The notes beneath the pieces are model-generated. The model worked only from the letters and a program-made list of their open reading frames with translations. It searched no databases and had not been told where the DNA came from. Shown piece after piece: positions 16,228 to 64,000 of a DNA stretch of 64,000 nt; position 1 is the first letter of the stretch; each line of letters begins with the position of its first letter. The DNA is from Thysanoteuthis rhombus (lineage: Eukaryota > Mollusca > Cephalopoda > Oegopsida > Thysanoteuthidae). Where the stretch lies: assembly GCA_963457665.1 (NCBI GenBank), contig OY735212.1:3072897-3136896 (forward strand), read 5' to 3'. Made by a program: the position numbers and the translations under genes.

Positions 16228-16321
16228 ATGAAAATCTTCGTCGCTTGTATTGTCCTTGCATTGGCGATCAATGCCTCAATTGGTTGCTACACGAGTCTTC
16301 CATCGATTGCTAAATATAAAT
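16228..16321 (+). CDS. Gene 1, exon 1 (signal peptide and Cys1)
   Basis: The ATG is in the context ACAACCATGA, kept in all copies. The exon ends with one base of a codon before GTAAGT at 16322. It encodes the signal peptide plus CYTSLPSIAKYK, and its protein is identical to that of gene 4 exon 1. Confidence 0.88.
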
Positions 16322-18111
16322 GTAAGTACATTTCTCATTGGATTTCCCTCTTCCAGATCGATTCTGATATTTCCATGATTCCATGTAGTTAACCATTTGT
16401 CCATCCCAAGAATCAGTCCCTCAATACATGGAACTCCATTCTCTCTGTCAGTTCTATCCACACATTCATCTGTATATAAAGCTGTATGAATCTGTACACG
16501 TATAATTCAGTAGGTACACATAAATACACATTAATCCAGGGTATGTCCTGCAAGTTCCAATTATTTCGAAAATCTCGGGATCTTGTGATCCCATTGCACA
16601 TACATTAACTGGCAATAAGGAGCTATTAAGTAAACATTTTTACTGTTTGGCTTCCATATTCACAATTATTGATCCAGTAAAGTCTTTTGCGTCTCATATA
16701 GAGTCTTTGGCAAAACATTGCTCTACCCTTTCATCCCCTTCACCCTCAGAATTTTTTTTCGCCCCCCTGCGATTTTCAGATTTTTTTCAAAAGCTGAAAT
16801 CATCTTAAAATGGATAGTTCAGGCCCACGGAAAATAATTTCAAAAAAGTCAAATATTAGAATCTTCTATATTGTCTTTCATTTGGCGACCAATGCCTCAT
16901 CTGGTTGCTACACGAGTCTCCCATCAATTCTTAAGTATAGATTTAAGTACGTTTTTCATTGGATTTCCCTCTTTCAGATCGATTCTGATATTTCCGTGAT
17001 TCCATCATTTGTTAATCGTTTGTCCATGGTAAGAATCAGTTTCTTAATCGATGGAATGAACTCATCCTTCTCTCTGTTTCTCATTCGGACGCTTCAACAG
17101 TCAAACAGTGTATATATCGCTGCATAGTCCATCCAACTGTATCCGAAGCTGTATGAATCTGTACGTGCATACAAACACGTATCACTTACAAAGACATTGA
17201 CAGAACATGGATATTTCTAATTTGTTTATTGGATAAAACAATGAATCTGATTTCCTAAAAGCTGTACTATTCCATCACTCTGATCTTTCTCAAATATGAC
17301 ATATACCATGAAATCAACTTTTAATAATTATTCATTTTACCAGCTATCAAATTTTCTTTACAGTAAATAGGTGAACTACTTCTAATCACCAAAAGTTAGG
17401 TGTAGAAAGTTCCAATCGTTTTGGATACCTTGAGAGCGTAACGTTGATGTAACTAGGCTATCTAGCCAAGAGGTCTCAATTTCTCATACACTAACAGGAA
17501 ATCTACTGTTGGGTCATTTGGTTGGCAGTGAGAAACCGTTAAATAAGCACATGTACTGTGTGATAGTCGTTCATGTCTCGTAAAGGGCATTGGGTAAAGA
17601 AAAAACATCACAGAAACATCAACCGAGTCTGTCAGCTCCCTGCTATTTCTGGATTTTAAAAAAATCAAAATCACCTTGAAATGGAGATTTCAGGACAAGA
17701 TTGAGAAGATTATCCATTCAGGACTCTTCGTATATTGCTTCATCAGCCTCAATATTGACGAAGAACTTTCAATCATTTAACATTAAAAAAATAGTTCCAT
17801 TAAAGAAATTGATAGGTAATTTTCATTGATAAAAATGTAATTAGCATCAATATGAAAAACTAATTTGTTCAACTTATGTTCTTTCACCTGAACTTTACAG
17901 TGATGTCACTTAATCTAGAGCTATGCATACATCGGCTCAAAAATAATCATTTTGCTCTATTTAATTATTTTTCATCATGATATATGTTAAATTGAATCAT
18001 CGCTGAGGCAAAAAGAGCGCATCCTGGTTTGCTATTTTACGTATAACTGGAGGGAGAACAGATGGATTGGTAGTGATATTTTGTAATAGACATCATAGCT
18101 GCTGTAGTGAA

Positions 18112-18183
<72 letters not shown>

Positions 18184-18943
18184 CTGTCAGTCTGTCTGTC
18201 TGTGTGTGTCTGTGTGTGTGCTTGCATACCGAAGAAAGGTAAAGGAAGTGTTACCTTTAGTGGGTATTAGTTGTAGGATATGTTGGCCATTCACAGATTC
18301 CCTTACGAAAAGTTTTGGTTCGCTCGGCCAAATGGGGCTCAGCTTAAAAGTAGCTCACTCTTTTTGTTGGTTGACTCATCAAACAAAACGCCATGATGAC
18401 TGGGTGGGAGACGGTCAATCTGAGAGAAACACGCTTTGCTTACACATCTCTCCCAGCAGCAGGCTGTAAGAGATGGGGAGTAGTAGATGAATAAGCTAAG
18501 TGTCAAATCCCTCGTGACTCCCCTCATCAAACTTTGTCCAGCTTTTTTGTCATTCATTTTTGTCTTTGTTTTTTTTTTTGTTTGCTTTTTTAAGCTGCTC
18601 CTATGACTCCAACAAAGCTGTTCAAATGACAATGGCTTTCCCTAAAATTTTCAGATACGTTTTCATGCAGTTATACAACATTTCTTACTTTAGAGTATGG
18701 CTTGAAAGTAGATATTACAATTTTTTGTTGATTAATGATGTGAAATAGTAATTTATAATGATTAATCACTCATCTCCCAATATTCGTCAATGCAATTAGT
18801 GTAATCTTTACAAGAGTTTTTTTCTCTCTTTGTTTTCCTCATACTTTTTTTTTTATCATTGTACAATATGTAAATTGTCTCATGTTGGGATCATAAGTTA
18901 CTCACCTTGTAACTATTTCGGGGATTTTATTAACACACATGCA

Positions 18944-18982
<39 letters not shown>

Positions 18983-21900
18983 ACACACACACATAAATAT
19001 ATATATATATATATATATATGTCAATTAAAAATAAATAAAATAAATATATATAAAATAAATTTGATTTTTTTATCTTGTATGTATAATCCATTTTAGGTT
19101 ATTGTACATTGATTTCACTTACCACAGAATTTTCGTACATCAAAAGCTCTGTTTCAAATGATTTTCCCGAAATTCCAGTGGCGAAACTACCATCAAAATA
19201 ATGAAAAGTTTGCTGCATTCATTTGTTCCGTAATTTTCTTATTTAATTAACCGTAAATGGAAACCTAACCGTAAACTTTGACACTAAACATCAACCTTAA
19301 CTTATACCATTTGTTGTTGATTTCAATAAAGTACAGATGTGGTCTTTCTTAGTTAAATGTCTTGCAAATGTATGTGTTTCAATGTTAAGCAAGACAGTTT
19401 TAAATGGCCAAGATAGTTTGCGCCACTTCAATGTATTAACTATGCATTGTGAACTTGTTTATTCTGCTTCGATATGTAATTGTATCATTTATTTGTTTTA
19501 AGGGTCTGATGACTGGTTGATCACTTGTGAATACCAAGGAATGAAATTTATGCCAGGAAGCAAATGGGTTGATGCTACTAACTGCCAGAGTTGTAGCTGC
19601 ACTAACGATGGACTGTCATGTTGTGGGTGAGTGTGACGTAAACTCATTTTTATCAGAAGTATTATAAATCATTATAAACAAATCGCATGACTACTTTTCA
19701 ATTTCATCTTAACTTTTTAGTTCTTTAATATCGCAACGGGCCAATCTCCCTTCGGCAGGGGTTGAATGGCGTAGAACTCTCTGTCCCCATGGGGAACTCT
19801 GTTTCCCGTTATTTTTTATCCACGAACAATGGAGTTTTTGTTTTGGAAGAAGGAAAACCGGTTTGAGTGGAAGATGAAAAGCTACTGAAAAAATCAAGAT
19901 GAAAGTAAAAAAAAAATTGTCTTAAATCATAATAATCTTAATAATGAATATGCCACATCCTTAATTTAAATTCCGCTTACTATATTCCGTTGGCCATCTG
20001 GAAGAATTTATCTTAGCAGGCTAAAATTGGACACTATATTTCGATACCATACTATTACTCCCTTAAGTTACCGTGTGAGAGCAGCATATTCATTATAGAA
20101 CTGTTTTGAACGATGTTTCCTCTAATCTTTAGTACTTAATGTTGTGCCATGTTTCTTTCTTCCTGGCACGAAAGGATGTACGCACTGTATCGATAGTTTG
20201 GGACAGGGACAATTAGCTACCATTTGCAATCACGATAATTATAATATACTGAACAACCGTAGACATTAAAGATGGCACAGGGTTTTATACTGGATGTGTA
20301 CCTATGTTTGTATGTTCTTACGCTTCTAGTCGTATCGTTTCGTTGACCTTCTTGGAAATTCGCATCAGAACTTGATTAAACTCCTTCTAAGAGTGTTTTC
20401 ATCTTTATTTTTGGGGAAAAGGGTTGTTTTTCTTAGTTTCCGGGAGCCTTTTTCGCAGGTTTGATAATAACATCTAGATTTCCAGAACGTAAAGGTTTTA
20501 TTTACTCAATTCTAGATATTTTTTCAGTGGAAATGGCATCTAGATTCCCCAGGATCTAAACGCTTCTAGATTTTTTAAATTCTATTTTAAATATTCTCTT
20601 GTAAAAGATACCAATGCCATGAACATAATTTTTTTCGATCACATTTATTCTTCGATGGAAGTTTTTGCATGAATTCGAATTCAGGCGCAACGGTTGTTTT
20701 ATTATTGACCATGGAAGCGAGTAATCATTGTATATGTAATTATTTTTCAACTCTCTTATGTGAACTTTTGTAGGGATCGGTAACATTTACAATAAAAGAC
20801 CAATGAATTCTGAAAGATAAGGGAGATATTTCAGTAGGGGACAAATTGAATATTTTCTTCTTTTTTTCTTTTTCAAAGAAAAAATTGCATTCATCATGTT
20901 GGTTGCAAGACATATATGCGCTTACACGCGTGCACAGCATCTAGGTAGCTATTACTCTGAGTCAAAAATTCATAAAAAGACGTTGATTTCTATAGTGGTA
21001 TTTCATTGAAATATTTGACTGGGGAGTGAAAAATACTATTACACAAACGAATGGTGAAGTTTCCAAATTATTAAACATCACGCAACAACAACCGCCTGTT
21101 TTGTAGTAAATACGGTACGTCTAATTTTACCAAACGCGTTGATTACCTCAAAACTTAATCCTACCTCATTGACATTTAATATTACACTGAATAGATAATT
21201 TGTACCGGAAGCGCTAAGATGTAGTTGTAATAACTATGATTCGCATAGCTGCAGTAATAGTTACAATGTTCAGATAAGCACTGATTCTGCTAGTTGAGAG
21301 ATTCAAAAAAGCCATGGCTCTCTGTGTGTGGCAATGGAAATTCGTTCAGTTTCAGTTACTTCCCGTTTGTGTAGTCATAAAAACAATGAACAATGTTGCA
21401 TACGAATATTTGAACGTGGAAGATGTATATGGAATTGTGCACATTTTTCTATTCCAAACTCCTTCCCCATGTCATCACTGTATTCTTTCACTGAACAACG
21501 TTTCCAGCTCTACCCTGTTCTTTGCAAATAGTTATATGTCTTCCATGTAATTTAGGTAGTCGACTTCTCCCTTTGCTTTAAAGAATGGGTATCCTTTGCT
21601 ATTTTTCAGGATTCTCTTGAGTGGTATCATAGTTATAAAAAATAGTAGTGGGTACAAAGAGTCTCCCTTGAAGATTCCCCTTTTTTATGCTTACGTCTGC
21701 CGGGTTTTCTTCCGTAGCTGTTAAGTATTTCCAGATTTTCATTGAGTAGGCTATCAATCTCACTACTGGTTCACTGATCTCAAATATTTTAAGGCATTCG
21801 AATATCCAGCTGTGTGGAATCATGTATGCTTTTTTATAGTCTATTCATCCCATTGCAATATCCTTCTTCCCTTTTCTTCCTGTCTTGTGACGATTGTATC

Positions 21901-22238
21901 CCTAGTGTTACAAGGAGTGGAGCATGAGCAGGGGTTTTTCTTTCCTTCTCCTCCCATAACACCGATCATATCTCATATAGCAACATTTAATATTTGTTAA
22001 TACTTTTGAGGAAAAATATTTTTGTAAAAAGACTTCAACTTCGGAAACTTTTGGTATTTTTTGTCCTAACATATGGGACTGTTTTTATTCAACAAACTCT
22101 CATTCTTGATTTTTTTTTCTAATTTACAGAATTGGTTATTACTCTGGTCCCAGATACGTCAGAGGCTGCACCGTTGTCGCAGACTTCTGCAAAGCCGTTG
22201 TTTTGAACAAGGCAAAAACTGCTTTGTGCCACAAATAA
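16228..22238 (+). CDS. Beta-microseminoprotein-like secreted protein, gene 1
   Basis: Three coding exons (16228-16321, 19503-19626, 22130-22238) with GT/AG introns of phase 1 and phase 2 encode 108 aa. Residues 1-19 are a signal peptide (MKIFVACIVLALAINASIG). The mature chain starts at Cys20. Ten cysteines (20, 40, 59, 62, 64, 71, 72, 86, 93, 106) follow the PSP94 pattern. The core CQSCSCTNDGLSCC has the same CX2CXCX6CC spacing as vertebrate beta-MSP, and the next gap to Cys86 is also identical (14 residues). The family are small secreted proteins. A squid member is an egg-capsule contact pheromone that triggers male aggression, so a reproductive or signalling role is an inference. The mature chain is basic (about +4) and has no N-glycosylation sequon. 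AATAAA is at 22302-22307. Family assignment is strong; the function is not shown. Confidence 0.88.
16853..16942 (+). pseudogene. Degenerate duplicate of exon 1 within gene 1 intron 1
   Basis: Matches exon 1 ('ccaatgcctcatctggttgctacac' core, broken into smaller matches). The start codon has become ATT, about seven bases are missing in the signal peptide, and the donor GTAAGT has become TTTAAGT. The downstream DNA also repeats the start of intron 1, so this belongs to a tandem duplication of about 625 bp (16228-16852 and 16853-about 17700). A similar relic is in gene 4. Confidence 0.75.
18112..18230. repeat. (TA)n-(TG)n-(CTGT)n microsatellite
   Basis: About 28 TA units, followed by TG and TCTG runs. 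Confidence 0.9.
18932..19020. repeat. (CA)n-(TA)n microsatellite
   Basis: CA-rich run with occasional T, passing into about 12 TA units. Confidence 0.9.
19503..19626 (+). CDS. Gene 1, exon 2 (Cys2-Cys7)
   Basis: Acceptor TTTTAAG, donor GTGAGT at 19627. It encodes SDDWLITCEYQG and then the core from Cys59 to the Cys71-Cys72 pair. Its length of 124 nt equals exon 2 of genes 2 and 3. Confidence 0.88.
19627..22129 (+). other. Gene 1 intron 2
   Basis: About 2.5 kb, phase 2. The part from about 20555 onward, minus the LINE fragment, is found inverted at 30540-28650. A minus-strand LINE fragment (21330-21870) lies inside. The intron ends in a polypyrimidine tract before TTTACAG. Confidence 0.75.
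21330..21870 (-). mobile_element. Minus-strand fragment of the REL-endonuclease LINE family
   Basis: The minus frame reads MIPHSWIFECLKIFEISEPV and then IKKGNLQG, the same RT palm as 11206-11580 (MIPHSWILECLRMFKISEPL). It is frameshifted, truncated at both ends and antisense to gene 1. The inverted copy of this intron at 28.6-30.5 kb appears to lack it, so it inserted after that duplication. Confidence 0.75.
22130..22238 (+). CDS. Gene 1, exon 3 (Cys8-Cys10 and stop)
   Basis: Acceptor TTTACAG, then IGYYSGPRYVRGC, CKAVVLNKAKTALCHK and TAA (22236-22238). The conserved ending 'gctttgtgccac.aataa' is shared with genes 2 and 3. Confidence 0.88.
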
Positions 22239-22880
22239 ATAAGCAATAATTTCTCTTATCACTAAACTACAATATTTTAATGTTTCTGACTAGAAACATT
22301 CAATAAAACGAATTACAATACCGACACAATTTATCCGTTGTTTTTCCTTTCCCTTTCACCTAAAATATCCGATTTCTTTGTTTGGTTTTGGTCCTCTAAG
22401 TATGTATAAGATTACAAAATATATGTAATAACACTCAAACACAAATACTAAAGGCGTGTGCTGTTTTTAACTTCGAGTGAACGAATTTGCGGAACTTTGC
22501 AATTTAAAACTATTATTTGATACACTCAGCCATGTGTAAGGCTTGAATTACGCTTTGTGCCACAAATAAATAAGCAAAATTGTCTCTCATCACTGAATTA
22601 CGATATTTTAATGTTTCTGACTAGAAACATTCAATAAAACGAATTATAATACTGACACAATTTATCTGTTGTTGTTTTTTCTTTTTCACCCAAAATATCC
22701 GATTTCTCAAAAGGTTTTGTTGTATATGTATGAATATGTGTATAAAAAACATAAAATAACGCTCTCACACACTTGCAAGTGGCGTGTGCCGTTTTAAACC
22801 TCGAATGAGCAAATTTGTGGAACTTTGCAATACAAAACTGATATTTAATACACTCAGTCATTTGTACAGCTTAAATTATG
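22221..22880 (+). repeat. Tandem duplication of the gene 1 3' end (331-bp unit)
   Basis: The unit 22221-22551 (last six codons, 3' UTR, AATAAA at 22302) is repeated at 22552-about 22880. It includes the coding tail 'gctttgtgccacaaataaat' and a second 'caataaaacgaatt'. The copies differ at roughly one base in eight or more. The second copy gives a spare polyadenylation region and a stranded bit of exon 3. Confidence 0.85.
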
Positions 22881-24211: not shown

Positions 24212-24214
<3 letters not shown>

Positions 24215-30775: not shown

Positions 30776-30779
30776 GTGA

Positions 30780-36319: not shown

Positions 36320-36990
36320 TATGTTGGAATATATCACCTTTTCTCAAGTAGATGATTGAAGGCAACATGTTTTCTTTCGGTATTTTTAACGTAATCACCA
36401 GCATTCATGATTCCGTCGATGAAATGCAGCTCATTAGTTCTATTGCAGCCATTACAACCCAAAACCATGACATTTCCCCCTCCTTGCTTAACAGTTTAGT
36501 CTAAACACTTGTCCTTTTATACCTGACATTGACGCCTGCTAACTCGTTTGATGTCATCAGACACAAATAGATTGATTTCTGTTTCATCTGGCAATAGTAC
36601 GGTGTCCTAAATCTGCTAATTTTCATCTTGATTTTCCTTGGCAAAATTTAAACGAGCCTGTTTGTGACCTATGTCAGTAGCAGTTCTCTGCTCGGACGTT
36701 GACCATGTAAGCCTATCTTGCTGAGAGCGTGTTTGATTGTTGCAATCGAAACATTCAGGCACACTTTTTTTTTACTTCATTAGCAAAAACTGACAGCCAA
36801 TTTCCGAGGGTCGTCATCGAACAATCTCTTGATACAGCGAATTGACCTTGGGGTAAACTTGCAAGGTCAACCTAGCCACTACTTTATTTTTGCACAATTT
36901 GGGCAAGAGAGTTTTTGCTTAACACCAGTCTAATAGCTATTTCTTGTAAGCTGTTTCCCTATTTGTGTCAATTAATAATACATTCCTTCA
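36320..36990 (-). mobile_element. Tc1-like transposase remnant, copy A
   Basis: The minus strand gives, across frameshifts, ALSKIGLHGQ and then a YYCQMKQKSIYLC region. This corresponds to the WSDET.I.LF motif before the first catalytic Asp region of Tc1-like transposases. Shared with copies B (45880-46320) and C (59280-60230) at the same place in the duplication units, so it pre-dates the unit duplications. Confidence 0.6.
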
Positions 36991-38620: not shown

Positions 38621-39155
38621 CAAATAATGGATATTAGTTTTTCAATGACTGGCCTTTCACAAAGAGAAAAACACAATTTTATTAAACGCCCCAAGAGTAA
38701 CGTTAATAGATGAAATATTTGAATTATAGAAAAAAATGAAAACAATTGAAAAGATATGTACACGACGGCCTTGTTTGACACAAAAGGGCCCGGAACGACA
38801 AAAGAACAGTTGGCAGGGGTGAGGGTATTCAAAATCAATACTTTAAATAATTTTGGTGGACAAAGACACATGCCATCTGTGTTGCATGACCAGTTTGTTA
38901 AGTTAGATATCTTATTGTTATTCTACAACTATCGATCATATTCTTGGAGCAGATTCTAATAGAAAAGGAAAAATATCAACATATATCTGATGATGACACC
39001 AGATTGTGAAGCTAAATATGAAATCCAATTTAAATTTGAAAACCAATGAAATTACTTTACAGCTATCAAAAATAAATAGTTGATCAATAAAAGAAGAGTA
39101 AGGACAATTAAAAAGATGACATCAGATTGAAAAAATTGATATTTCATTCTTTCAA

Positions 39156-39251
39156 AGTTGTCAACAAAAGAAAGTACTTTACAGCTGTCGAATATAACCT
39201 TGACAAGTGCAACTCTATGCAAATGCATGTTGGAGTAGATCTATATAAAAA
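39156..39251 (+). promoter_or_regulatory. Gene 2 core promoter: E-box, octamer, TATA
   Basis: ACAGCTGT (39181-39188), ATGCAAAT (39217-39224) and TATATAAAAA (from 39242), same spacing as gene 1. Confidence 0.75.
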
Positions 39252-39352
39252 GGGGAACTTATCAAATTTTATCAGTTTTCCTCATTGACGTGAGAAACAA
39301 AAGTTGTTTTCCTTTCATCTGAGTCCGATAATTCCAAAGAAGAAAGACAACC

Positions 39353-39446
39353 ATGAAAATCTTCGTTGCCTGTATTGTCCTTGCATTGGCGATCAACGTC
39401 TCAATTGGTTGCTACACGAGTCTTCCATCAATTGCTGAATATAAAT
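39353..39446 (+). CDS. Gene 2, exon 1
   Basis: Signal peptide and CYTSLPSIAEYK. Donor GTAAGT at 39447. Confidence 0.87.
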
Positions 39447-41452
39447 GTAAGTACATTTCTCATTGGATTTTCCTATTCCAGATCGATTCTGATATTTCCA
39501 TGTTTCCATGTAGTTAACCATTTGTCAATCCCATGAATCAGTCCTTCAATAGATGGACCTTCATTCTGTTTGTCAGTTCTATCCGCCCATCCATCTATAT
39601 AAAAAGCTATATGAATCTTTAAATCTATAATTCAATAGGTGCACACATATGCACACATTAATTCGGGGTATGTACAGAAAGTTCCGATCATTCTGAATAT
39701 CTCGAGAACTGGTGGTTAGGTTCAGATATAATTCGTCAGTCAACCAGAGATTATCCCATTGCGCATACATGAACTGGCAATGAAAAGCTATTAAGTAAGC
39801 ATTTTTACTGTGTGGCTTCCATATTGACCATGATTGATTGAGTAAAGTCTTTCATATTTGGTGTAGAGTCTTTAGCAAAGCACTCAGTTTCTCCAGAAGC
39901 TGAAATCACCTTGAAATGAATTGCAATTTGGGGAAAGAATTGTTAGAGAATGATTCGTTCATTGCTGCATCATCTTTGATATTGACGAAGAACGTTCAAT
40001 CATTTATCAGAAAAGAAACATTTACTCAGAAGAAAGTCATATGTAATTAGCTTTTATAAAAACATTATTATAATGAAAATGATTTTTTTTTTACTAAAAC
40101 AGGATATATAAGAGATGGATTCAATCCTTCTGTACTGGCACAAGAATAAAAAGAGTTTCTGTTGGATTTTGAACTCGTCTAACCGATTCCATTGTATTAC
40201 ACATAGGATTACACATTATATAACAACTGAAATTATGTACATTTTGACAAAAATAACTTCTTGAATTATACTTATCTACTAAATATTTATAAGAAAATGT
40301 GCCTAAGACATCCATCCTACCTACATACATATCCTTCGTGTGGGACTAGGCTGTAATAACTGTGACCAACAAAACACCATTAAACCAATTTCTTTCAGAC
40401 TTATCTCTGAGAATATCGGAACTATCGTGACAATAATGAAAAGTTTGCTGCTTTCATTTGTTCCGTAATTGACTTTTATGGTAACCTTACCCATAACCCT
40501 AAACCCAAACCCTGACACTGAACACTAACTGAAACTGATATCTTCTCAGCTGTATTTGATGAAATACAGATTTAATTGCACGTCTTACCTGCTTTCATAT
40601 CTTATGTAATTGACTTCTATCTTTTCTACTTAAATGTATTGAGATGTATCAGTTCTATTGTTTAGAAGCACAAAATACTTTACGCTGATTTAATGTATTA
40701 GGTATTCATTGTGGCGTAGTCAATGCCACTTCAATATATTATTGTGTCATTCTTTTGTTTTCAGGGTCGAATGAGACGTTCCAGTATTGTGAATATCAAG
40801 GGAGACAATTCATGACAGGAAGTGAATGGATTGATGCCGAGAACTGCATGAATTGTACCTGCAGCGATAAGGGATTATCCTGCTGTGGGTGAGTATGACA
40901 TTTCCTTTTTTCATTCATCAGATGAATTATTACAAACCATTATTATTTATTTTTATTACTTTTTTAATCATTTTAACTTTTTAGTTTCTTGTCATCACAA
41001 ATTTAAATCAACCATTACAAGCACCTTTTGAAGATATACGTGTGTGAATGAAATGAAAGATATTTTGCTTTTTGCTTGCTTTGTGTTATACCTTCAAAAA
41101 TTAGTTGCGTCTAAAAAGAAGTCGGACTTTTCCCACCTATGAGACACCATTGAGCGTCCTATCACAGTATTTTGGAGTCAATGTGGCTAGAAAGAATGGT
41201 GTATTTCTTAATGCACTTGTATGTGAGGAGATAAAAGATTTAAGAGTTCCGAATTTGAAATCAACTTTTTGGATGTTTAGCAAAAATATGATCTTTATTG
41301 CATTCACTTCTTGAGCAGAGATCATCTTGCTTCACTATGTTAGAGTGACAAATACAGATTTTGAGCTTAGCTTAGTCAATCCCGATTGTGAGGCAAAGAG
41401 TGAGGATCGGATTCATTACGCTAGAAATATGTATTGTGTCATTTGAAGTATA

Positions 41453-41505
<53 letters not shown>

Positions 41506-41538
41506 TATATACATAATATGAAGAATTAATTCAACACC

Positions 41539-41589
<51 letters not shown>

Positions 41590-42265
41590 CAACAAGCTGA
41601 AATTCAGTGACGCCATGTACAAATAACAGTGACACAGTGACGTACGCTAAAGCTGATGACGAATTCACTCCAATTTCAAAAGTCCACGTCAGTTCGACTT
41701 ATTTTGCTAAAGTTAGCAAATCCAGTTGATAGGAACAACTGATAAATAAGTTGAAATGGGACACATGCTATGTTGTATGGAGAATTGAATTCTGTTCTCT
41801 TTACATTTTAGATTTTCTTTTCTATCTTTTTTTTTCATTGCTCGCTTCTTCCCACGAAATTTTTGTTTTTTATATATTCTCTCTATCTCCCTCTCCTCTG
41901 TCAGTCTGTCTTTGCATCCTGTCTTTTTTCCTCATTTCTTTCTTTCTTCCTTCCTTTTAATATGTCTGTCTTCTCCAAAACACAAAGCCCATCCCATGCA
42001 GGAACATCCTATAGTCATCATTACTTCCTAACACTTTGACTTCGTTGACTAGGGATATTTCATGTCGAATTGGACCTACTGGAAAACACGAAACAGCTTT
42101 TATCTAACACAAATCAACGAAGATTCATTCTTTCATTTTTTTTTCTTTATTCACAGAATTGGTTATTATGCTGGTATTATGAACGTCCCAGGTTGTGTTG
42201 TTGTTCCGGATCACTGCAAAGCAGTTCTTTTGAACAAGAACAAAACTGCTTTGTGCCACGAATAA
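39353..42265 (+). CDS. Beta-microseminoprotein-like secreted protein, gene 2
   Basis: Exons 39353-39446, 40765-40888 and 42157-42265 encode 108 aa with the same exon lengths and phases as gene 1. The signal peptide is nearly identical (Ala16 to Val). All ten cysteines are at the same positions, with the core CMNCTCSDKGLSCC. By my count exon 1 differs from gene 1 at 2 of 31 residues, exon 2 at 18 of 42 and exon 3 at 11 of 36. The mature chain is acidic (about -3, against about +4 for gene 1) and has three N-glycosylation sequons (Asn34, Asn61, Asn101), where gene 1 has none. AATAAA is at 42313. It is probably secreted and co-expressed with gene 1. The ligand or receptor is unknown. Confidence 0.88.
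39447..40764 (+). other. Gene 2 intron 1
   Basis: 1.3 kb, phase 1. It carries one copy of the intron-start block, not the two seen in genes 1 and 4. It keeps 'aatatctcgagaactggt', which in gene 4 belongs to the second copy, so it looks like a collapse by recombination between the two. From about 40230 on it is nearly identical to gene 3. Confidence 0.6.
40765..40888 (+). CDS. Gene 2, exon 2
   Basis: Acceptor TTTTCAG, donor GTGAGT at 40889. Encodes SNETFQYCEYQG through the Cys71-Cys72 pair. Confidence 0.87.
41459..41590. repeat. (TA)n and (AAT)n microsatellites in gene 2 intron 2
   Basis: TA run 41459-41515 and AAT run 41539-41590. The AAT run is at the same place as 49889-49951 in gene 3, with 'caacaccaataat' in front of both. 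Confidence 0.85.
42157..42265 (+). CDS. Gene 2, exon 3
   Basis: Acceptor TTCACAG. IGYYAGIMNVPGC to CKAVLLNKNKTALCHE, then TAA (42263-42265). Confidence 0.87.
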
Positions 42266-44790
42266 AATGAAATACCTTTTTCTCCTTTTCATGTCTCTGA
42301 TTCAAAGCTTTTAATAAAGTGAATTACAACAATGACACAATTCATCAGTTGTTTTGTTCCATTTCTCACTCAAGCATCCGGTTAATGGAAAAGTTTTTTG
42401 TACATGTCTGCATGTATGTTGAATCTACATTTTTTAGACCCTAAAGCTTGAGCTGTTTATGGGACTTCTCCCCGCAATCAGTGACAATATGACAACATCC
42501 AACAAGGTCCAAAGGGTCCTGCTGCCCTTGCAAAGACCACGATGCTCAAAGCGCGGAGAGTGACGTTGATGGTGTAGAGTCCTTCATGTGGCCATGCAGT
42601 AGTCCCACTTCCTACCAGCAACGAAGTCTGGGTAACTACGATTAAAATTCTTCAATGATGCTTGGGTGAGTAACCGGCTAGTTATTTACTTTTTGCTTTG
42701 AAATTCGGTGCATTCCCAAAGGTTACTCTGATATGCATACACAACAATGACAGTAAAATATAATTTCATGCATTTTGTGGTAATGTAGTTGTTAACATTT
42801 ATTACGAAAATTGGATTCTCATAATATGAGGACTATAGTGTGATGTCGAGACTCATGAGTCATCAAAAGGTTGAGAAACTTGATATACATGCATTACTGA
42901 ATGATGAAATGAAACATAGCAAATACCACAGTCAATGTAATCTTAGACACATATGAAAATACATACTGCATGAAGCCAATCTGACGAAATACTCCTTCTT
43001 CTGTTCTTCTATCAACGTATTCATGTAGAGTTTTGTCATATGAGATCTTATTCACAATGTAATTTTTTAGAGACAATATGCATAAAAAATATAGGCACTC
43101 TTCAGTTATGGGAAAACGAAATTTGTTCCTGATAAAAGATTGATTTGAGAACTCCCTTCCTGCATCACAGCTCGCGTCAGGCACAGCTGAAACGCAAAAG
43201 TAGTATTGGGAAACACTTTAATCGGATGTTGCTCACATATAACCAGAAGAAATTTTCCTTGGTTTGATAAGTAATAAAAGTATCATTTTTTAGCCCTTTA
43301 CCTCGACTGGATCGGGCTGTATGTGTGGCATGTACAGAGCAAGGTAATCAGAAAAAAGGAGGCAAAATTTTAATCTTAAGTATGTAGATATTTGAATCAG
43401 CGGACGTTTAGATCCAAGGAAAAACCATTCAAATATGAACAACCCTGTCAGAAGAGGAGTTACCGAGAAAAAATAACATACGGAAAGGGTGAACGAAATG
43501 AAGGTGCCTGCGTAGACATGCCATCATCCCTCTTATTTGAGCTTTGATATCTATGAAACTCTTCAAACCAAGCCAAGCAAGCGAGATTTCCGTTATGGTT
43601 CTAAGATTAGGTCAGTAGATATCTGGACAGGTACGATCCATGAGGTTCATATGGTTGCCTGTGGTGAGTACCTATACGCAATGATGAGAGACGGGTGAAT
43701 CAACAACCTGTGACGATGCATTGAGGAGGTAAGACATTAGGCATATGAGGGATATTAGAAGTGAGCAAAATCTTCTCCGACAAGTAAGAACCAAAAAGAC
43801 CTGAATTTCTATTTCTCATTGAGAATGCCTGTAAATTCGCGCCAAATTTGTCAGGATTAACCCACATGTATAAGGAGAATTGAAATAGGCTCAACTGAAA
43901 TAATTACTCTTCCATGTTTTTTACTCGAGAGGAGGAATGGAAAGGGGGCATTAAAGATACCAAATACTAAGCTACTGTCAAAATCCCATGAATGAAAAAT
44001 ACAGAAAAAGGAACACAAATATTCTTGTTAACCTTCTCATTGACGAATAACTAGATTCATAATATACCATGTGAATGCAGAAAGTATATAAAGGAGAAAC
44101 ACGTCGTCCTCTTGGAATCAGATGCGAAGAATACAAAAAGGCCATATCCGAAGAAAGAGTACAAAAATCTAGTGTTGTTGACTACATTTGAGGTGGAAAA
44201 TATGGACATTACATCCTCTGGGAGGAAATCTAAATAAAATGCTGAAAACATCGCTGGAGACCAAGAAAACTCTTAGGGGCGGCGTACATAAAATACCGAC
44301 TAATTGTATGTCAGATAAGCTGGTGCATAAGAAGTAAGGGTTACATTCTAAATCGAACCTTTCATCAAAAACTTGACATTTACAAAAATTAATTTGTTTA
44401 GGACAATCTCCGATGTCATATCAATACGTACAGAAAGTCCCGTGGGGGTATGTTGTGTGTCCCCTCAGTTACGCAATCAGATGAGGACAGACAAATATTT
44501 GATGATTTATAGGATAATATTATCCTTAGCTTAATGATTCGTATTTTTCGTCGAAATCCACTCCACAGAATGATCACCGGTTTTACAGATAGTCTTCAAT
44601 ACAATATGTTACAGCAACGATGTAAATCGGCATTTCTTCAATAATATTTATTATTCATAATTTTATTTTCAAATGTTTTCATTGATTCTCCTTTAAGCGT
44701 TGTGAAGAATCATCCCTTAAGTGGAATTTAACATAATGATGCATTGATACATTCGGACCATTTTCCTTTGTCTTGTCTTTGCACAACACT
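42266..44790 (+). other. Gene 2 downstream flank, no gene
   Basis: AATAAA at 42313-42318. Then blocks shared with gene 3 downstream DNA (42470-42680 with 50990-51210; 42830-43230 with 51355-51660) and with the DNA before gene 4 (43560-43960 with 57910-58180; 44340-44580 with 58240-58480). Short open frames here show no domain. Confidence 0.6.
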
Positions 44791-45879: not shown

Positions 45880-46320
45880 TACACCCCTGTGAGTTTTGCA
45901 CAAACATACGCTGGATTACTTTTAAACTCTGACTTTTGTCTTGTTGGTTTGTCGCCATTTCTCTACCTTTAAGTATATTTCCAAAATGCTCAGTTGGATA
46001 AAATAACCCGGAGTCTTCTGATCATTGTCATGTTGGAACACATCACCTTTTCCCAAGCATCTGATTGAAGGCAATATGTTTTCTTTCAGTATTTTTATCG
46101 TAATCATCAGCATTCATGATTCCGTCGATGAAATGCAACTCATCAGCTCTGTTACAGCCAATACAACCCCAAAATATGACATTTTCCTCCACCTTGCTTA
46201 GCAGTTTAGTTTAAACTAACTTATTTGTGTTTTGATATCAGTAGCAGTTTTTATCACTTAATAATAAATTCTTTCGTATCAAAAGAGAATTCTATCCGAC
46301 GTCGAGACATTTCTGAAATC
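45880..46320 (-). mobile_element. Tc1-like transposase remnant, copy B
   Basis: The minus frame reads ILPSIRCLGKGDVFQHDNDQK, split here as ILPSIRCLGK then GDVFQHDND, matching the LLPSI....FQ.DNDPKHT block that carries the second catalytic Asp of Tc1-like transposases. It is truncated relative to copies A and C. Confidence 0.75.
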
Positions 46321-47904: not shown

Positions 47905-49157
47905 GGGGAACTTATCAAATTTTGTCAGTTTTTCTTATTGACGTGAGAAACAAAAGTTGTTTTCCTTTCATCTGAATCCGATAATCCCAAAGAAGAAAGA
48001 CAACCATGAAAATCTTTGCGCCTGTATTGTCCTTGCATTGGCGATCAGCGTCTCAACTAATTTCTTCGAGGGTGAACTGAAAATTGCTGAATATAGATGT
48101 AAGTACATTTCTCATTGGATTTTCATCTTTCAGATCGATTCTGATATATCTATGTTTCCATCTTGTTAACCATTTCATGTAAGATAAAGATTTCTATGAA
48201 AAATATTGGTATGTCATTAGCTTTGATAAAAACAATATTACCATTATTATCAATATTGGCTTTTAAAAACTACTTTTTTACCTAATGTAATTTTTCTATC
48301 ATCATATCAAAATAAACATATTATATCACATTAAATTATTTTTGTACTCATAAGGCTAGAAAACAGAGTCTTTGTTGCTATTTTACTTATAGCTAGAGTG
48401 ATACCAGTAGGATTCATCCATTCTTTCATGGCATCAGAATATGAAAAGTTTTGGTCAGATTTCTAAACTCATCTCGTTGATTCAATTATGAGATTATATC
48501 GCGTCCTTCGGAAGCTACTGATAATAGAACAAGAAAGTAAGATAATGTATACTATATCATTTTACTTTGTGCAATTTCTGATCATAATAATATAGAATTG
48601 AAGCTCATTATATAACTATGTTGATTATGTACATTTTGACAAAAATAACTACTTGAATTATACTTACCTACTAAATATTCAAAGGAAAATGTGCCTAAGA
48701 CATCCATCCTACCTACATACATATCCTTCGTGTGGGACTAAGCTGTAATAACTGTTACCAATAAAACACCATTAAACCAATTTCTTTCAGACTTATCTCT
48801 GAGAATATCGGAAACTATCGTGACAATAATGAAAAGTTTGCTGCTTTCATTTGTTCCGTAATTGACTTTTATGGTAACCTTACCCATAACCCTAAACCCA
48901 AACCCTGACACTGAACACTAACTGAAACTGATTTCTTTTCAGCTGTATTTGATGAAATACAGATTTAAATGCACGAGTTACCTGCTTTCATATCTTATGT
49001 AATTGACTTCTATCTTTTCTACTTAAATGTATTGAGATGTATCAGTTTTATTGTTCAGAAGCACAAAATACTTTACGCTGCTTTAATGTATTAGGTATAC
49101 ATTGTGGCGTAGTCAATGCCACTTCAATATATTATTGTGTCATTCTTTTGTTTTCAG

Positions 49158-49281
49158 GGACGAATGAGTCGTTCCATTATTGTGAATATCAAGGGAGATA
49201 ATTCATGACAGGAAGTGAATGGATTGATGCCGAGAACTGCATGAATTGTACCTGCAGCGATAAGGGATTATTCTGTTATGG
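49158..49281 (+). pseudogene. Gene 3, exon 2 with premature stop
   Basis: Nearly identical to gene 2 exon 2. TAA at 49199, Tyr for Cys72, donor GTTAGT. Confidence 0.85.
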
Positions 49282-49887
49282 GTTAGTGTGACAAAATTTT
49301 TTTCATTCATCAGATGAGTTATTACAAACCATTATTATTTTTTTATGATTACTATTTTAATCTCTCTAACTTTTTATCACAAATCTTAATCAACCTTTAC
49401 ATGCATTTTTTGAAGATATACGTGTATGAATGAAATGATAGATTTTTTGCATTATGGTTTGTTCTGTGTAATACCTTCAAAAGCTAATTGGGTCTGAAAA
49501 AAAAGTTGCATTTTTCCTGCCTATGAGTAGCCATTAAGTGCCATATTACACTATTTTTTGGAGTCACTGTTGCTCGAAAGAGTGATGTCATTTGAATGCA
49601 CTTGTATATATGGAGATAAAAATGTAAGAATTCTGAACTTGGTTCTTGAAATCAACTTTTTGGATGTTAAGCAAGATTATGATCTTTATCGTGTTGACTT
49701 TTTGAGCGAAGATCATCTGGGTTCACTATGAAAGAGTGACAAATACAGATTTTAGGCGTAGCTTAGTCCATCCTGATTGTGAGGCACAGTGTGAGGATTG
49801 AATTCATTACGCTAAAAATATGTATTGTGTCATTTGAAGTATATTTTGATATACATTACCGATAATATGAAGAATAAATTCAACACC

Positions 49888-49888
<1 letters not shown>

Positions 49889-49952
<64 letters not shown>

Positions 49953-49976
49953 AGATAATAATGATGATGATGATAA
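49889..49976. repeat. (AAT)n-(GAT)n microsatellite in gene 3 intron 2
   Basis: About 20 AAT units followed by GAT units. Positional equivalent of 41539-41590. Confidence 0.85.
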
Positions 49977-50630
49977 TCAACAACAAACTAAAAAACCAGT
50001 GACGCCATGAACAAATAACAGTGACACAGAGACGTACATTAAAGCTGATGACGATTTCACTCCCACTTCCAAAGCCAATCGCTAGTTGACTTATTTTACT
50101 AAATTCATCTAATCCAATTGGCAGGAACAATGAATAAATAAGTTGAAATTGGACACGTACTATTTGATTGATTTTGAATAGAGAAATGAATTCTGTTTTG
50201 TTTGCATTTTAGATTTCTCACATTTCTTTTCTTTGTTTTTTCTGTATATCGTTTTCTTTTTCTTTCAAATCAAATTGATTTGCTCAAAGCAAACTTTTAC
50301 TGTGCTGTTTTTCAGTCTTGCTAGCCTCTTCACTTGGAAAGATTTTTTAAAAATACATTCTCTCTTCGTGTCTGGCCCCTCCTCTCTCTCTCTCTCTCTC
50401 TTTCTGTCTGTCTCTTCTTTTTTTACTTTCTTCCTTTCTTTCTGATTAACACTAAGCTCATTCCATGCAGAAACATCCAATACTCATTATTACTTCCTAA
50501 CAAAAAAACTTAGACTCCGTTGACTTTGGGTATTTTATATCGAATTCGAACTATTGAAACATATGAAACAGCTTTTATTTAACCAAAATCAACTGAGATA
50601 CATTCTTTGATTTTTCTTCTTTATTCACAG

Positions 50631-50739
50631 AATTGGTTATTATGCTGGTATTATGAATGTCCCAGGTTGTGTTGTTGTTCCGGATCACTGCAAAGCAGTT
50701 CTTTTGAACAAGAACAAAACTGCTTTGTGCCACGAATAA
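50631..50739 (+). pseudogene. Gene 3, exon 3 (frame intact)
   Basis: Acceptor TTCACAG. Protein identical to gene 2 exon 3, ending in TAA. AATAAA at 50786-50791. Confidence 0.85.

Positions 50740-57545: not shown

Positions 57546-57551
<6 letters not shown>

Positions 57552-57590
<39 letters not shown>
57552..57590. repeat. (TG)n microsatellite
   Basis: About 19 TG units. Confidence 0.85.
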
Positions 57591-57592
<2 letters not shown>

Positions 57593-59279: not shown

Positions 59280-60230
59280 AATATATGACGTGGTCGCCTG
59301 TATCTTTTATTACTGCTTGTAGTCTTGATGATATTGACCTAATTAGATTTACACTAACATTCACTGGATTGTTTTTCCGCTCCGACATTATACAGTCTTT
59401 CTATTTTGTCTCGATGGACAGTCGTTGTTTTTCTACTTTCCGTTTAAGTACATTTCCCCAAGTGCTCACTTGGATTCAAAGCTAGTGACATCTTAGGTCA
59501 ACTGAGCTCATTTAACTCCTGCTTCTTGGGAAGCTCTACTGTCATCTGAGTAGATTATCTTTTGATCATTGTCATGCTTGAAAACATCACCTTTTCTCAA
59601 GCATTTGATTGAAGGCAACATGTTTTATCTCAATAGTTTCAATGTAATCTTTAGCACTCATGATTCTATTGATGAAATGCAACTCACCAGTTCTATTAAA
59701 GCTCAAACAACTCTAAACCATAACATTTACCCCTACCTTGTTTAACAGTTTAGTCTAAACACTTGTCCTTTTTTACCTGACAATAACGCCTGCAAACTCG
59801 TTAGATACCATCGGACACAAATAGATTAATTTCTGTTTCATCTGACAATAGTACGGTGCTACAAATCTTTTAATTTCTATCTTGATTATCCTTGGCAAAA
59901 TTCAAACAAGCCTGTTTACGTCTCAGTTTCAGTGGCGTTTTCCTGCACGATGTAAGCCTATCTTGGGGAGGGCACGTTTAAATGTGTTAGTCAAAACATC
60001 TACTCAGATTGATTCATACTATCCACAGTCAATTTTTTTCACCAACCAATCCAATGATATTGAGAATGAAGTTTGGTTTCAGCATGCAAGGTCAACCGGG
60101 TCGCTCCTATACACTAATTCCACTTTCCTTGTAAGTTTGCACAATTTAGACAAGAGAATTTTTGCTTAACATCAGTCTAGTAGTTGTTTTTCGGTAGCTG
60201 TTCTTAATAAAATGTTCCATCAAATAAGGA
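59280..60230 (-). mobile_element. Tc1-like transposase remnant, copy C (most complete)
   Basis: On the minus strand, across frameshifts: a region equal to copies A and B, FKHDND-like (about 59585-59570), then ALNPSEHLGKC (PDLNPIE.LW motif with the terminal catalytic Glu), then SRLQAVIKDTGDHV (C-terminal QAVI...GGH.KY). This order is that of Tc1-family DD34E transposases. No open frame remains. Confidence 0.75.
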
Positions 60231-61556: not shown

Positions 61557-61652
61557 ACTTGTCAACCAAAGAAAGTACTTTACAGCTGTCAAATATGACC
61601 TTGACAAGTGCATCTCTATGCAAATGCATGTTGGAGTAGATCTATATAAAAA
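61557..61652 (+). promoter_or_regulatory. Gene 4 core promoter: E-box, octamer, TATA
   Basis: ACAGCTGT (61582-61589), ATGCAAAT (61618-61625) and TATATAAAAA (from 61643). Confidence 0.75.
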
Positions 61653-61752
61653 GGGGAACTTATCAAATTTATCAGATTTCTTCATTGACGTGAGAAACAA
61701 AAGTTGTTTTCATTTCATCTGAGTCCGATAATTCCAAAGAAGAAAGACAACC

Positions 61753-61846
61753 ATGAAAATCTTTGTCGCCTGTATTGTCCTTGCATTGGCGATCAATGCC
61801 TCAATTGGTTGCTACACGAGTCTTCCATCAATTGCTAAATATAAAT
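61753..61846 (+). CDS. Gene 4, exon 1
   Basis: 94 nt, ATG context ACAACCATGA, CYTSLPSIAKYK after the signal peptide. Confidence 0.86.
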
Positions 61847-63415
61847 GTAAGTACATTTCTCATTGGATTTTCCTCTTCCAGATCAATTCTGATATTTCCA
61901 TGTTTCCATCACTTGTTAACCATTTGTCCATCCCAAGAATCACTCCCTCAATACATGGAACTCCATTCTCTCCGTCAGTTCTATCCACCCATCCATCTGT
62001 ATATAGAGCTGTATGAATCTCTACATGTATAATTCAGTAGGTACACATAAATACACATTAATCCGGGGTATGTCCTGCAAGTTCCAATTATTTTGAAAAT
62101 TTCCAGATCTTGTGATCCCATTGCACATACATTAACTGGCAATAAGGAGCTATTAAGTAAACATTTCTACTGTTTGGCTTCCATATTCACAATGATTGAG
62201 CGAGTAAAGTCTTTTGCATCTCGCGTAGTCTTTGGCAAAACATTGTTCTACCCTTTCAGCCTATTCCACCTCGGAATTTTAGATTCGTCCCCCTGCGATT
62301 TTCCGTTTTTTTAAAGCTGAAATCACCTTAAAATGGTTATTTCAGGCCGTGGAAAATAATTTCAAAAAAGTCAAATATTAAAATCTTCTTTTCCTATATT
62401 GTCTTTCATCTGGTTGCTACACGAATCTTCCGTCAATTGTTAGATATAAATGAAAGTACATTTTTCATTGGATTTCCCTCTTTCAGATCGATTCTGATAC
62501 TTTGATAATACCATCTAGTTAATCGTTTGTCCATCCAAATAATCAGTCCTTCAATCCATTAATGGAACATTCTTTCGCTCTCATTTTAAATATCTCGAGA
62601 ACTGGTTGTGTGGTCCTTATGTAATTTGACTACCAACCAGAGTATCCTACTGCACACACATAAACCGGCAATGAGAAGTCATAGAGTAAGAAATTTTACT
62701 GAGTAGCTTTCATCTTCACAATGAATGAACGAGTTCAGTCTTTAAAGTCTCGTATAAGGTTTTTGACTATAAGCATCAAATTACCTAGATCTACCGGTTC
62801 CCACGAGTCTAAATTTGTCTCAATGCGATTTCAGACTTTTTGTAAAACTAACATAGCCTTGAAATTGAGATTGAAGGTAGCGGAAAAGATTAAGGAGAAT
62901 ATTTACCAAGAAAGCTTCATAATTGCCTAATCAGCCTTGATATTAACAAAGAACTTTCGATCATTTATTATTGAAAAAATATTTCCATCCAATGTGTAAC
63001 TAGCTTTGATTACAAAAGATTATTACCATCAAAATGAAAAATTATTTTTTGAAACTTTTAAGGCTTTGAAATGATTATTATTTTATCCTGTGAATTTTTT
63101 CATGATAAGATATATTAAATGAAATCCCTGTTTGTGCTAATAAGACTAAGGATCGCAGTGTTCCCAGCTATTTCAATTATTGCTAGGGTCATGATGGATT
63201 CCGCCCTTCTCAGGGGGAATTCGGGCATAAACAGGCTCGATCAGATTTCGAACTTGCCGATTCCAATATTCTAATATTTCGAGTCTTTCTGAAGCTACGA
63301 ATGATAGAACAATAAATTAGCATTATTTTATTAAAAAGTTTTTATTTTACTACGTCAATTTTTTCACCATAATATTACAAAGAGAATTAAAATACATTTT
63401 ATGACTAGATGAATC

Positions 63416-63490
<75 letters not shown>

Positions 63491-64000
63491 GAGAAATATT
63501 TACTTAAATAAAAGTTTTCTACGAATGGTTAGTAAAAAAAAAATAAACAAATAAAAACAGCCTAATACATGCTTTCCACCTTCCAAACTCTCTTTACCTA
63601 GAACGTATCCCTCGTCCGATGCTAGGCTGTGATAATTATGACCATCAGAAAATCGCTTGATCGAATTCGTTTCAGACGTATCTCTGTGAATTTCAGTGGC
63701 AAAACTACCTTGATGATTATGAAAAGTTTTCTGCTTTCATCTGTTCCGTAATTGACTTATATAATAGCCTTTACTGTAACCCTAAACCTAACCCCAAACT
63801 CTATGGATTTAAATAGACAAGTTTTCTGCTTTCATTTCCTCCAGGATTGACTTATATCCTTTGGAGTTAATTGTATTGAAACGTACGTCTTTTATTGTTG
63901 AGAAACATATAATAGTTTACGCTGCTTCAAATTATTAGGAATAGGTTGTCCCTTTCAATATATAACTCATTTCTTTATTTTCAGGGTCTGATAAGTTTTT
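61753..64000 (+). CDS. Beta-microseminoprotein-like secreted protein, gene 4 (partial)
   Basis: Exon 1 (61753-61846) encodes a signal peptide and mature N-terminus identical in protein to gene 1. Donor GTAAGT is at 61847. Exon 2 starts at 63985 after TTTTCAG and reads (W)SDKF before the window ends. Exon 3 must lie beyond the edge. The promoter is intact and no defect is seen in the visible coding part. Like gene 1 it has a degenerate second exon 1 in intron 1, unlike genes 2 and 3. SDKF differs from both SDDW (gene 1) and SNET (gene 2), so it is likely a third distinct mature protein. Confidence 0.82.
62380..62451 (+). pseudogene. Degenerate duplicate of exon 1 within gene 4 intron 1
   Basis: Shares 'ctggttgctacacgaatctt' with exon 1 but lacks the start codon and most of the signal peptide. 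The donor is TGAAAGT. Preceded by the same 'ggaaaataatttcaaaaaag' sequence as the relic in gene 1, so both descend from one event. Confidence 0.7.
63418..63486. repeat. (TA)n microsatellite
   Basis: About 34 TA units in gene 4 intron 1. Confidence 0.9.
63985..64000 (+). CDS. Gene 4, start of exon 2 (cut by window edge)
   Basis: Acceptor TTTTCAG, then GGTCTGATAAGTTTTT. With the T from exon 1 this gives W-S-D-K-F. Confidence 0.75.

What the first reader, a model, noticed from the sequence alone, without database searches (positions are those of the whole stretch)
16228..64000. Tandem array of beta-microseminoprotein genes, candidate pheromone locus
Four plus-strand copies with identical exon design encode secreted ten-cysteine proteins with the beta-MSP spacing. 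A beta-MSP is the egg-capsule contact pheromone of loliginid squid (established knowledge). A clustered, expanding family suggests a multi-component reproductive or chemical signal. The family match rests on cysteine spacing and the signal peptide seen here. The pheromone role is inference.
Basis: partly seen in the sequence, partly recalled or inferred. Interest (0 to 1): 0.9.

Follow-up and report, generated by a model that had tools for sequence, protein, structure and literature searches.

The report
Tandem microseminoprotein-like secreted protein genes
An animal DNA stretch carries a small row of related genes for secreted, disulfide-bonded proteins resembling beta-microseminoprotein (two look intact, one is dead, one runs off the end); this is a known kind of gene family, and a role as a mating or egg signal is possible but unproven here.

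Summary
The array is real. Four gene copies lie on the + strand with the same exon borders. Only two are intact in the window: c1 (16228-22238) and c2 (39353-42265), each 108 aa with a signal-like leader and ten cysteines after it. c3 (48006-50739) is a pseudogene (frameshift, in-frame stop, lost cysteines). c4 (61753-) leaves the window after 16 bases of exon 2. Two dead exon-1 relics accompany c1 and c4. The cysteine spacing (19-18-2-1-6-0-13-6-12) resembles human beta-microseminoprotein (15-18-2-1-6-0-13-8-13), and the PDB hits are all of that kind. Pfam PSP94, however, scores only 12.6 and 13.3 bits against a cut-off of 22. I call it beta-MSP-like, judged by framework and exon layout. The promoter and signal exon are 88-100% identical between copies apart from two stretches, while c1/c2 exons 2-3 are 69-75% identical. 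A 96%-identical intronic tract between c2 and c3 points to gene conversion. dN/dS of c1/c2 exons 2-3 is about 0.3, so there is no sign of positive selection. Nothing here shows the species, tissue or a pheromone role. Clusters of this family are already in print (opossum, zebrafish, sea cucumber).

The parts
16228..16321 (+). c1 exon 1: start codon, signal-like leader, first mature residues (first Cys)
   Evidence: donor GTAAGTAC
19503..19626 (+). c1 exon 2: Cys 2-7 core (CEYQG...W...NCxxCxC......CC)
   Evidence: acceptor TTTAAG, donor GTGAGTGT
22130..22238 (+). c1 exon 3: C-terminal domain, Cys 8-10, stop
   Evidence: acceptor TTACAG; AATAAA at 22302
39353..39446 (+). c2 exon 1
40765..40888 (+). 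c2 exon 2
42157..42265 (+). c2 exon 3, stop
   Evidence: AATAAA at 42313
48006..48098 (+). c3 (pseudogene) exon 1: one-base deletion, first-Cys stretch replaced
49158..49281 (+). c3 (pseudogene) exon 2: in-frame TAA, CC changed to CY
50631..50739 (+). c3 (pseudogene) exon 3: frame still open, 108 of 109 bases as in c2
61753..61846 (+). c4 exon 1 (31 encoded residues identical to c1, 91 of 94 bases)
63985..64000 (+). c4 exon 2, first 16 bases; the rest lies beyond the window
16116..16130 (+). TATA box CTATATAAAAAGGGG of c1 (same in c2 39241, c3 47894, c4 61642)
   Evidence: sequence match only
16092..16099 (+). octamer ATGCAAAT of c1 (same in c2 39217 and c4 61618; ATGCAAGT in c3 47870)
   Evidence: sequence match only, factor binding not shown
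16870..16944 (+). exon-1 relic downstream of c1: without the homologous start codon and first residues, donor GTAAGT changed to TTAAGT
62403..62450 (+). exon-1 relic downstream of c4: without the homologous start codon and first residues, donor GTAAGT changed to GAAAGT
39040..39404 (+). identity island c2/c3 over promoter and exon 1 start (345 of 358 aligned bases)
40232..41056 (+). identity island c2/c3 over the intron 1 end, exon 2 and intron 2 start (769 of 813), likely gene-conversion tract
41342..41671 (+). identity island c2/c3 wholly inside intron 2 (263 of 288)
42126..42345 (+). identity island c2/c3 over exon 3 and 3' UTR (208 of 218)

Best explanation
This is a tandem array of beta-microseminoprotein-like (MSMB/PSP94-type) genes that evolves by birth-and-death and gene conversion. 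Each working copy would be transcribed from its own near-identical TATA promoter. It makes a small secreted protein of about 89 residues held by five disulfides: an N-terminal Greek-key-like domain from exons 1-2 and a C-terminal domain from exon 3. The likeliest use is as an exocrine secretion product, from a reproductive-tract or mucosal gland, that acts outside the cell by binding partner proteins or surfaces. The shared promoter and signal exon would place the copies in the same gland, while the mature exons differ between copies. Shown: gene structure as read from the sequence, intact frames, cysteine framework, promoter and exon 1 identity, the conversion-like tract. Inferred: expression, secretion, fold, disulfide pairing, gland, partner binding.
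For: Gene models with GT...AG splice sites. Ten mature Cys, with six consecutive spacings (18-2-1-6-0-13) identical to human and pig beta-MSP. PDB search by sequence returned 3 of 3 and 5 of 5 hits (E up to 1) from the beta-MSP/SSP-2 kind, best E 0.0023 and 0.0025. Local profile comparison of c1/c2 with human, pig and partial chicken MSP: E 5e-05, probability 67.5. The exon 2/3 border falls in the codon after the CC pair, between the N- and C-terminal domains; PMC3268785 describes exon 4 of MSMB as encoding the C-terminal domain and MSMP as having three coding exons (passages). The promoter core -270 to +150 is 88-100% identical between copies, apart from c1 pairs before -210 and c3 pairs over the replaced part of exon 1; further upstream than -330, pairs of c2, c3 and c4 are 63-85% identical. 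Exon 1 dS 0.22 against 0.93 in exons 2-3 for c1/c2, Fisher P 0.015 on rounded counts. The c2/c3 island at 40232-41056 includes about 530 intronic bases at 96%, while c4 differs there by 22-26% from c2 in the two longest alignable pieces and by 23% from c3. c1/c2 exons 2-3 dN 0.27, dS 0.93.
Against: Pfam PSP94 is below its cut-off, and VWC scores about as well for c2. With cysteines held fixed and the other residues shuffled, the match to human beta-MSP is only modest (61 of 2000 shuffles reach it for c1, 13 of 2000 for c2) and to pig weak (134 and 274 of 2000), so the similarity is largely the cysteine framework. Global profile alignment gives probability 3.5. The exon-2 structure model is poor (pLDDT 59.4) and matched nothing convincing. 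Protein database searches found no homologue. No transcript, tissue or protein data.
Confidence: 0.62

Rival explanations
1. The array is a reproductive contact-signal locus: several beta-MSP variants laid into egg capsules and sensed by conspecifics, as with Loligo beta-MSP.
For: Family resemblance. A beta-MSP-like contact pheromone of squid egg capsules is described (Cummins 2011, not read; seen only as cited in PMC4500399 and PMC3268785 passages). The mature part varies between copies while promoter and signal are shared.
Against: Host unknown. No Loligo sequence could be compared. dN/dS is about 0.3, not above 1. Only two copies are shown intact. Other family members have other roles.
Confidence: 0.15
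2. The proteins are mainly innate-defence or mucosal secretions (antimicrobial, or neutralising CAP/CRISP-type proteins).
For: Chicken MSMB3 is an egg-white protein reported to be antibacterial (PMC8167871, passages); PSP94 binds CRISP2 and blocks its sterol binding (PMC8857485, abstract and outline); a clam beta-MSP transcript is listed at -3.03 in a table of a Vibrio-challenge study (PMC4234419, one passage).
Against: No expression or activity data for these genes.
Confidence: 0.25
3. The proteins belong to a different cysteine-rich family (a single von Willebrand C-type domain), and the beta-MSP match is convergent.
For: Pfam VWC E 0.067 for c2, about equal to PSP94 E 0.13; cysteine-fixed shuffles show only modest residue similarity.
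Against: c1 lists PSP94 only. All PDB hits with E up to 1 are of the beta-MSP kind. The spacing follows beta-MSP through the CC pair and the 13-residue gap and nearly so to the last cysteine.
Confidence: 0.08
4. The identity islands reflect purifying selection (promoter, splice enhancers, exons) with no gene conversion.
For: Three of the four strong c2/c3 islands include exons or promoter; the shuffle control there does not allow for selection.
Against: The exon-2 island runs about 530 bases into intron 1, where c4 is only 74-78% like c2 in its two longest alignable pieces, and the fourth island lies wholly inside intron 2. Synonymous sites in exon 1 are also less diverged than in exons 2-3 (c1/c2).
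Confidence: 0.3

Closest known systems
Vertebrate MSMB/PSP94 (human 3ix0, pig 1xhh, chicken MSMB3 6rwc)
   Same: Ten cysteines; spacings 18-2-1-6-0-13 identical to human and pig; secreted; intron between the N- and C-terminal domains (PMC3268785 passages)
   Different: Other spacings differ (19 against 15 or 12; 6 against 8; 12 against 13); weak residue similarity; below the Pfam cut-off; three coding exons with the start codon and leader in one exon, whereas MSMB is described with four exons and the start codon at the end of exon 1
Vertebrate MSMP (prostate-associated microseminoprotein)
   Same: Three coding exons (PMC3268785 passage)
   Different: MSMP is described as showing the strongest conservation among vertebrates, whereas c1 and c2 differ at 30 of 89 mature residues; no MSMP sequence was compared
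Molluscan MSMB-like genes including Loligo beta-MSP (PMC3268785 section 10; Cummins 2011, not read)
   Same: Presumably the same family, if the host is a mollusc (inference)
   Different: No sequence was found in the tools; no alignment made
PSP94-like tandem cluster of Apostichopus japonicus (11 genes, PMC5638244 passages)
   Same: Tandem array, assigned to PSP94 by cysteine topology as here
   Different: Described as up-regulated after evisceration; no sequence compared
Snake small serum protein 2 (6imf chain B)
   Same: PDB hit, E 0.0038 with the c1/c2 profile; CxxCxC......CC core
   Different: Next spacing 11 instead of 13 (partial segment)

Membership tests
beta-microseminoprotein / PSP94 family | Ten mature cysteines in the family order, with an adjacent CC as the 6th and 7th | tested here: met
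   c1 and c2 19-18-2-1-6-0-13-6-12; human 15-18-2-1-6-0-13-8-13; pig 12-18-2-1-6-0-13-8-13; c3 does not keep it and c4 cannot be read
beta-microseminoprotein / PSP94 family | Pfam PF05825 above its curated cut-off (a detection threshold rather than a biological feature) | tested here: not met
   12.6 and 13.3 bits against 22
beta-microseminoprotein / PSP94 family | Best solved-structure relatives are beta-MSPs | tested here: met
   3 of 3 and 5 of 5 PDB hits with E up to 1 are beta-MSP or SSP-2, best E 0.0023
beta-microseminoprotein / PSP94 family | Residue similarity beyond the cysteines | tested here: inconclusive
   Cysteine-fixed shuffles reaching the score: human 61 and 13 of 2000, pig 134 and 274 of 2000 (c1 and c2)
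[quoted passage not shown]
   Intron 2 falls in the codon after the CC pair in c1 and c2 (CY in c3); exon 4 of MSMB encodes the C-terminal domain (PMC3268785 passage)
beta-microseminoprotein / PSP94 family | Signal peptide, secreted | tested here: inconclusive
   Hydrophobic N-terminus MKIFVACIVLALAIN and small residues before the first mature Cys, seen in the sequence; no signal-peptide predictor was run
beta-microseminoprotein / PSP94 family | beta-MSP fold and disulfide pairing | tested here: inconclusive
   Only the 41-residue exon 2 was modelled, pLDDT 59.4; best PDB match E 7.3
Squid egg-capsule contact pheromone (Loligo beta-MSP) | Orthology with Loligo beta-MSP | not testable with these tools
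   No Loligo sequence at hand; the protein searches gave no homologue
Squid egg-capsule contact pheromone (Loligo beta-MSP) | Made in female accessory glands, present in egg capsules, evokes aggression | not testable with these tools
   No expression, proteomic or behavioural data
Single VWC-domain proteins | Pfam VWC above its cut-off | tested here: not met
   c2 13.9 bits against 27.6; c1 not listed

The most novel reading that the evidence does not exclude
A cephalopod contact-signal locus in which copies share one promoter-plus-signal-exon cassette, kept uniform by gene conversion, while exons 2-3 diverge. Females would then coat eggs with a species- or individual-specific blend of beta-MSP variants, and copies would be lost and regained by conversion with pseudogenes such as c3.
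Probability: 0.1. Interest if true: 0.75.

Novelty: new member of a known kind. Interest (0 to 1): 0.35.

Why it matters
Beta-MSP-like proteins turn up repeatedly in reproductive secretions and egg coats of distant animals, and one is reported as the squid egg-capsule aggression pheromone. A mapped array with exact exons, a pseudogene and a conversion tract gives testable gene models: which copies are expressed, where, and whether several variants are laid down together. If the host proves to be a cephalopod, this would be a concrete candidate locus for a multi-component egg signal. If not, it is one more lineage-specific expansion of a fast-evolving secreted family.

Tried and rejected
Four intact genes: rejected, because c3 is broken and c4 is truncated by the window. 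Positive selection on the mature part: not supported (dN 0.27, dS 0.93 for c1/c2 exons 2-3; one pair only and few sites). c3 read from another start: no in-frame ATG in the upstream bases shown in the frame that keeps its exon 1 residues. A donor for the replaced c3 exon-1 stretch: within the window only matches of 14 bases or less touch the replaced bases. Further copies or minus-strand copies: exon-wise tblastn at E below 1 found only the copies and relics listed, plus scattered matches with E of 0.036 or more. Host identity: base composition and a LINE-type reverse-transcriptase remnant (RVT_1, and zf-RVT just below its cut-off) do not name a host; of 1713 homologues of its third piece the best 120 were listed, without names. 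Of the 8 open frames given to Pfam, only the RVT_1 piece passed a cut-off. Rfam 0 matches, tRNA 0. The bacterial promoter scan does not apply to an animal gene and found nothing. An exon-2-only fold was uninformative. Literature: 0 papers hold both 'microseminoprotein' and 'gene conversion'. I saw no paper on a cephalopod microseminoprotein gene array in the listings; these are open-licence papers only, judged by title and abstract start except where passages are cited, and three lists were capped (25 of 5,164, 10 of 357, 12 of 66).
Full report
What is there. Six-frame reading, self-comparison of the window and inspection of splice borders show four related gene copies on the + strand, with start codons at 16228 (c1), 39353 (c2), 48006 (c3) and 61753 (c4). 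c1: exons 16228-16321, 19503-19626, 22130-22238. c2: 39353-39446, 40765-40888, 42157-42265. Both run from ATG to stop through GT...AG introns of identical phase (phase 1, then phase 2) and encode 108 residues: a hydrophobic leader, then 89 residues with ten cysteines (the cleavage site before the first of these cysteines is my assumption). c1 and c2 share 59 of these 89 residues (49 of 79 without the cysteines) and the same spacing.

What is not there. c3 is a pseudogene: one base is missing early in exon 1, a stretch that holds the first mature cysteine is replaced by other bases, exon 2 has an in-frame TAA, and the CC pair reads CY. Its exon 3 is still open and 108 of 109 bases match c2. c4 gives exon 1 and the first 16 bases of exon 2 before the window ends. 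So two of the four copies are shown to be intact here. Two exon-1 relics (16870-16944 and 62403-62450), each about 0.55 kb downstream of the first exon of c1 and c4, lack the homologous start codon and first residues and have a ruined donor. Exon-wise tblastn at E below 1 gave no other convincing copy on either strand.

More than chance. The stop-free pattern C-x18-C-x2-C-x-C-x6-C occurs in the six frames of the window only at exon 2 of c1 and exon 2 of c2; 100 order-2 Markov simulations gave none. The exons line up among copies with conserved splice sites, and the promoter is conserved.

Family. The spacing 19-18-2-1-6-0-13-6-12 compares with 15-18-2-1-6-0-13-8-13 in human and 12-18-2-1-6-0-13-8-13 in pig beta-MSP. 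A PDB sequence search with c2 gave three hits with E up to 1 (two beta-MSP sequences and snake SSP-2; best E 0.0023); a c1/c2 profile gave five, all of this kind (best E 0.0025). Local profile comparison with human, pig and partial chicken MSP gave E 5e-05 and probability 67.5, but the global one gave probability 3.5. Against the reading: Pfam PSP94 is below cut-off (12.6 and 13.3 bits against 22), and VWC scores about as well for c2 (13.9 against a cut-off of 27.6). When cysteines are kept and the rest shuffled, 61 of 2000 (c1) and 13 of 2000 (c2) shuffles reach the human score, and 134 and 274 of 2000 reach the pig score. The kinship therefore rests mainly on the cysteine framework, plus the intron that separates the N- and C-terminal domains, as PMC3268785 describes for MSMB (passages). 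The sea cucumber genes were assigned to PSP94 on the same ground (PMC5638244, passages). I call it beta-MSP-like. Chicken MSMB3 disulfides are given as C2-C43, C12-C35, C30-C66, C33-C42, C57-C80 (PMC8167871, passage); by order, the same pairing would link Cys 1-7, 2-5, 3-9, 4-6 and 8-10 here (inference).

Control region. All four copies carry CTATATAAAAAGGGG starting 111-112 bases before the ATG. An octamer ATGCAAAT starts 24 bases before it in c1, c2 and c4 and reads ATGCAAGT in the pseudogene c3. In 60-column steps from about -270 to +150, copy pairs are 88-100% identical, except c1 pairs before -210 (65-68%) and c3 pairs over the replaced part of exon 1 (67-73%). Further upstream than -330, pairs of c2, c3 and c4 are 63-85% identical (82-92% in the step at -330). 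Downstream of +150, c1/c4 stays at 74-100% while c1/c2 and c2/c4 fall to 76-90%.

How the array evolves. c1/c2 synonymous divergence is 0.22 in exon 1 but 0.93 in exons 2-3 (Fisher P 0.015 on rounded counts). Between c2 and c3, four stretches are more alike than any found in 1000 shuffles of the alignment columns: 40232-41056 (769 of 813), 39040-39404 (345 of 358), 42126-42345 (208 of 218) and 41342-41671 (263 of 288), against 81% overall; two weaker ones are within the shuffles' range. The shuffles do not allow for selection. The first stretch, however, includes about 530 intronic bases (528 of 551 identical at 40214-40764), where c4 differs by 22-26% from c2 in the two longest alignable pieces and by 23% from c3, and the fourth lies wholly inside intron 2. 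Constraint alone is therefore a poor account, and gene conversion is likely. dN/dS of c1/c2 exons 2-3 is 0.27/0.93: purifying on average, with no sign of diversification, though from a single pair.

Mechanism. Shown: gene layout, intact frames, framework, shared promoter. Inferred: secretion by one gland type, a five-disulfide beta fold, action by binding outside the cell. For the last step there are family precedents: PSP94 binds CRISP2 and inhibits its sterol binding (PMC8857485, abstract and outline), and chicken MSMB3 is an egg-white protein reported to be antibacterial (PMC8167871, passages). Loligo beta-MSP is cited as an egg-capsule contact pheromone (PMC4500399 and PMC3268785 passages; the original paper was not read). 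A snail MSP-like precursor, called the first MSP in a molluscan brain, rises in abnormally maturing animals (PMC10036341, passages), and a starfish member is among secreted genes most highly expressed in testes (PMC9759900, passages). The reproductive theme is common in the family but not universal.

Host. Not established. The window is 32-40% G+C in 4-kb blocks and contains a LINE-type remnant (10145-12647) whose third piece has 1713 homologues, the best 120 listed without names. The protein searches for c2 and for the c4 exon-1 frame found nothing. The genome search did not complete in nine tries.

Novelty. Clusters of this family are in print: 14 opossum MSMB paralogues flanking each other, a zebrafish cluster of three USM homologues (PMC3268785 passages) and 11 tandem PSP94-like genes in sea cucumber (PMC5638244 passages). 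Molluscan members including cephalopods are described (PMC3268785 section 10). So this is a new member of a known kind. The uniform promoter-plus-signal cassette and the conversion tract are the less expected parts.

Noticed in passing
10145-12647: Interrupted LINE-type retrotransposon remnant on the + strand in three open pieces; the second hits RVT_1 and the third hits zf-RVT just below its cut-off.
   Followed up: partly
9709-9956 and 12731-12978: Direct repeat of 248 bases at 93% identity on either side of the LINE remnant.
   Followed up: no
22221-22550 and 22552-22878: Tandem duplication (82%) starting in the last bases of c1 exon 3 and covering its 3' UTR.
   Followed up: no
36321-36663, 46030-46216, 59574-59917: A segment shared at 82-87% about 1.8-3 kb upstream of c2, c3 and c4, with no match upstream of c1 in the listing (150 bases or more); either part of the duplication unit or a transposon.
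   Followed up: no
48057-48082: Part of c3 exon 1 is replaced by bases unlike the other copies, with shared sequence on both sides; within the window only matches of 14 bases or less touch it.
   Followed up: partly
11205-11630 and 21438-21854: A second, inverted piece of the same LINE lies in intron 2 of c1 (78%).
   Followed up: no
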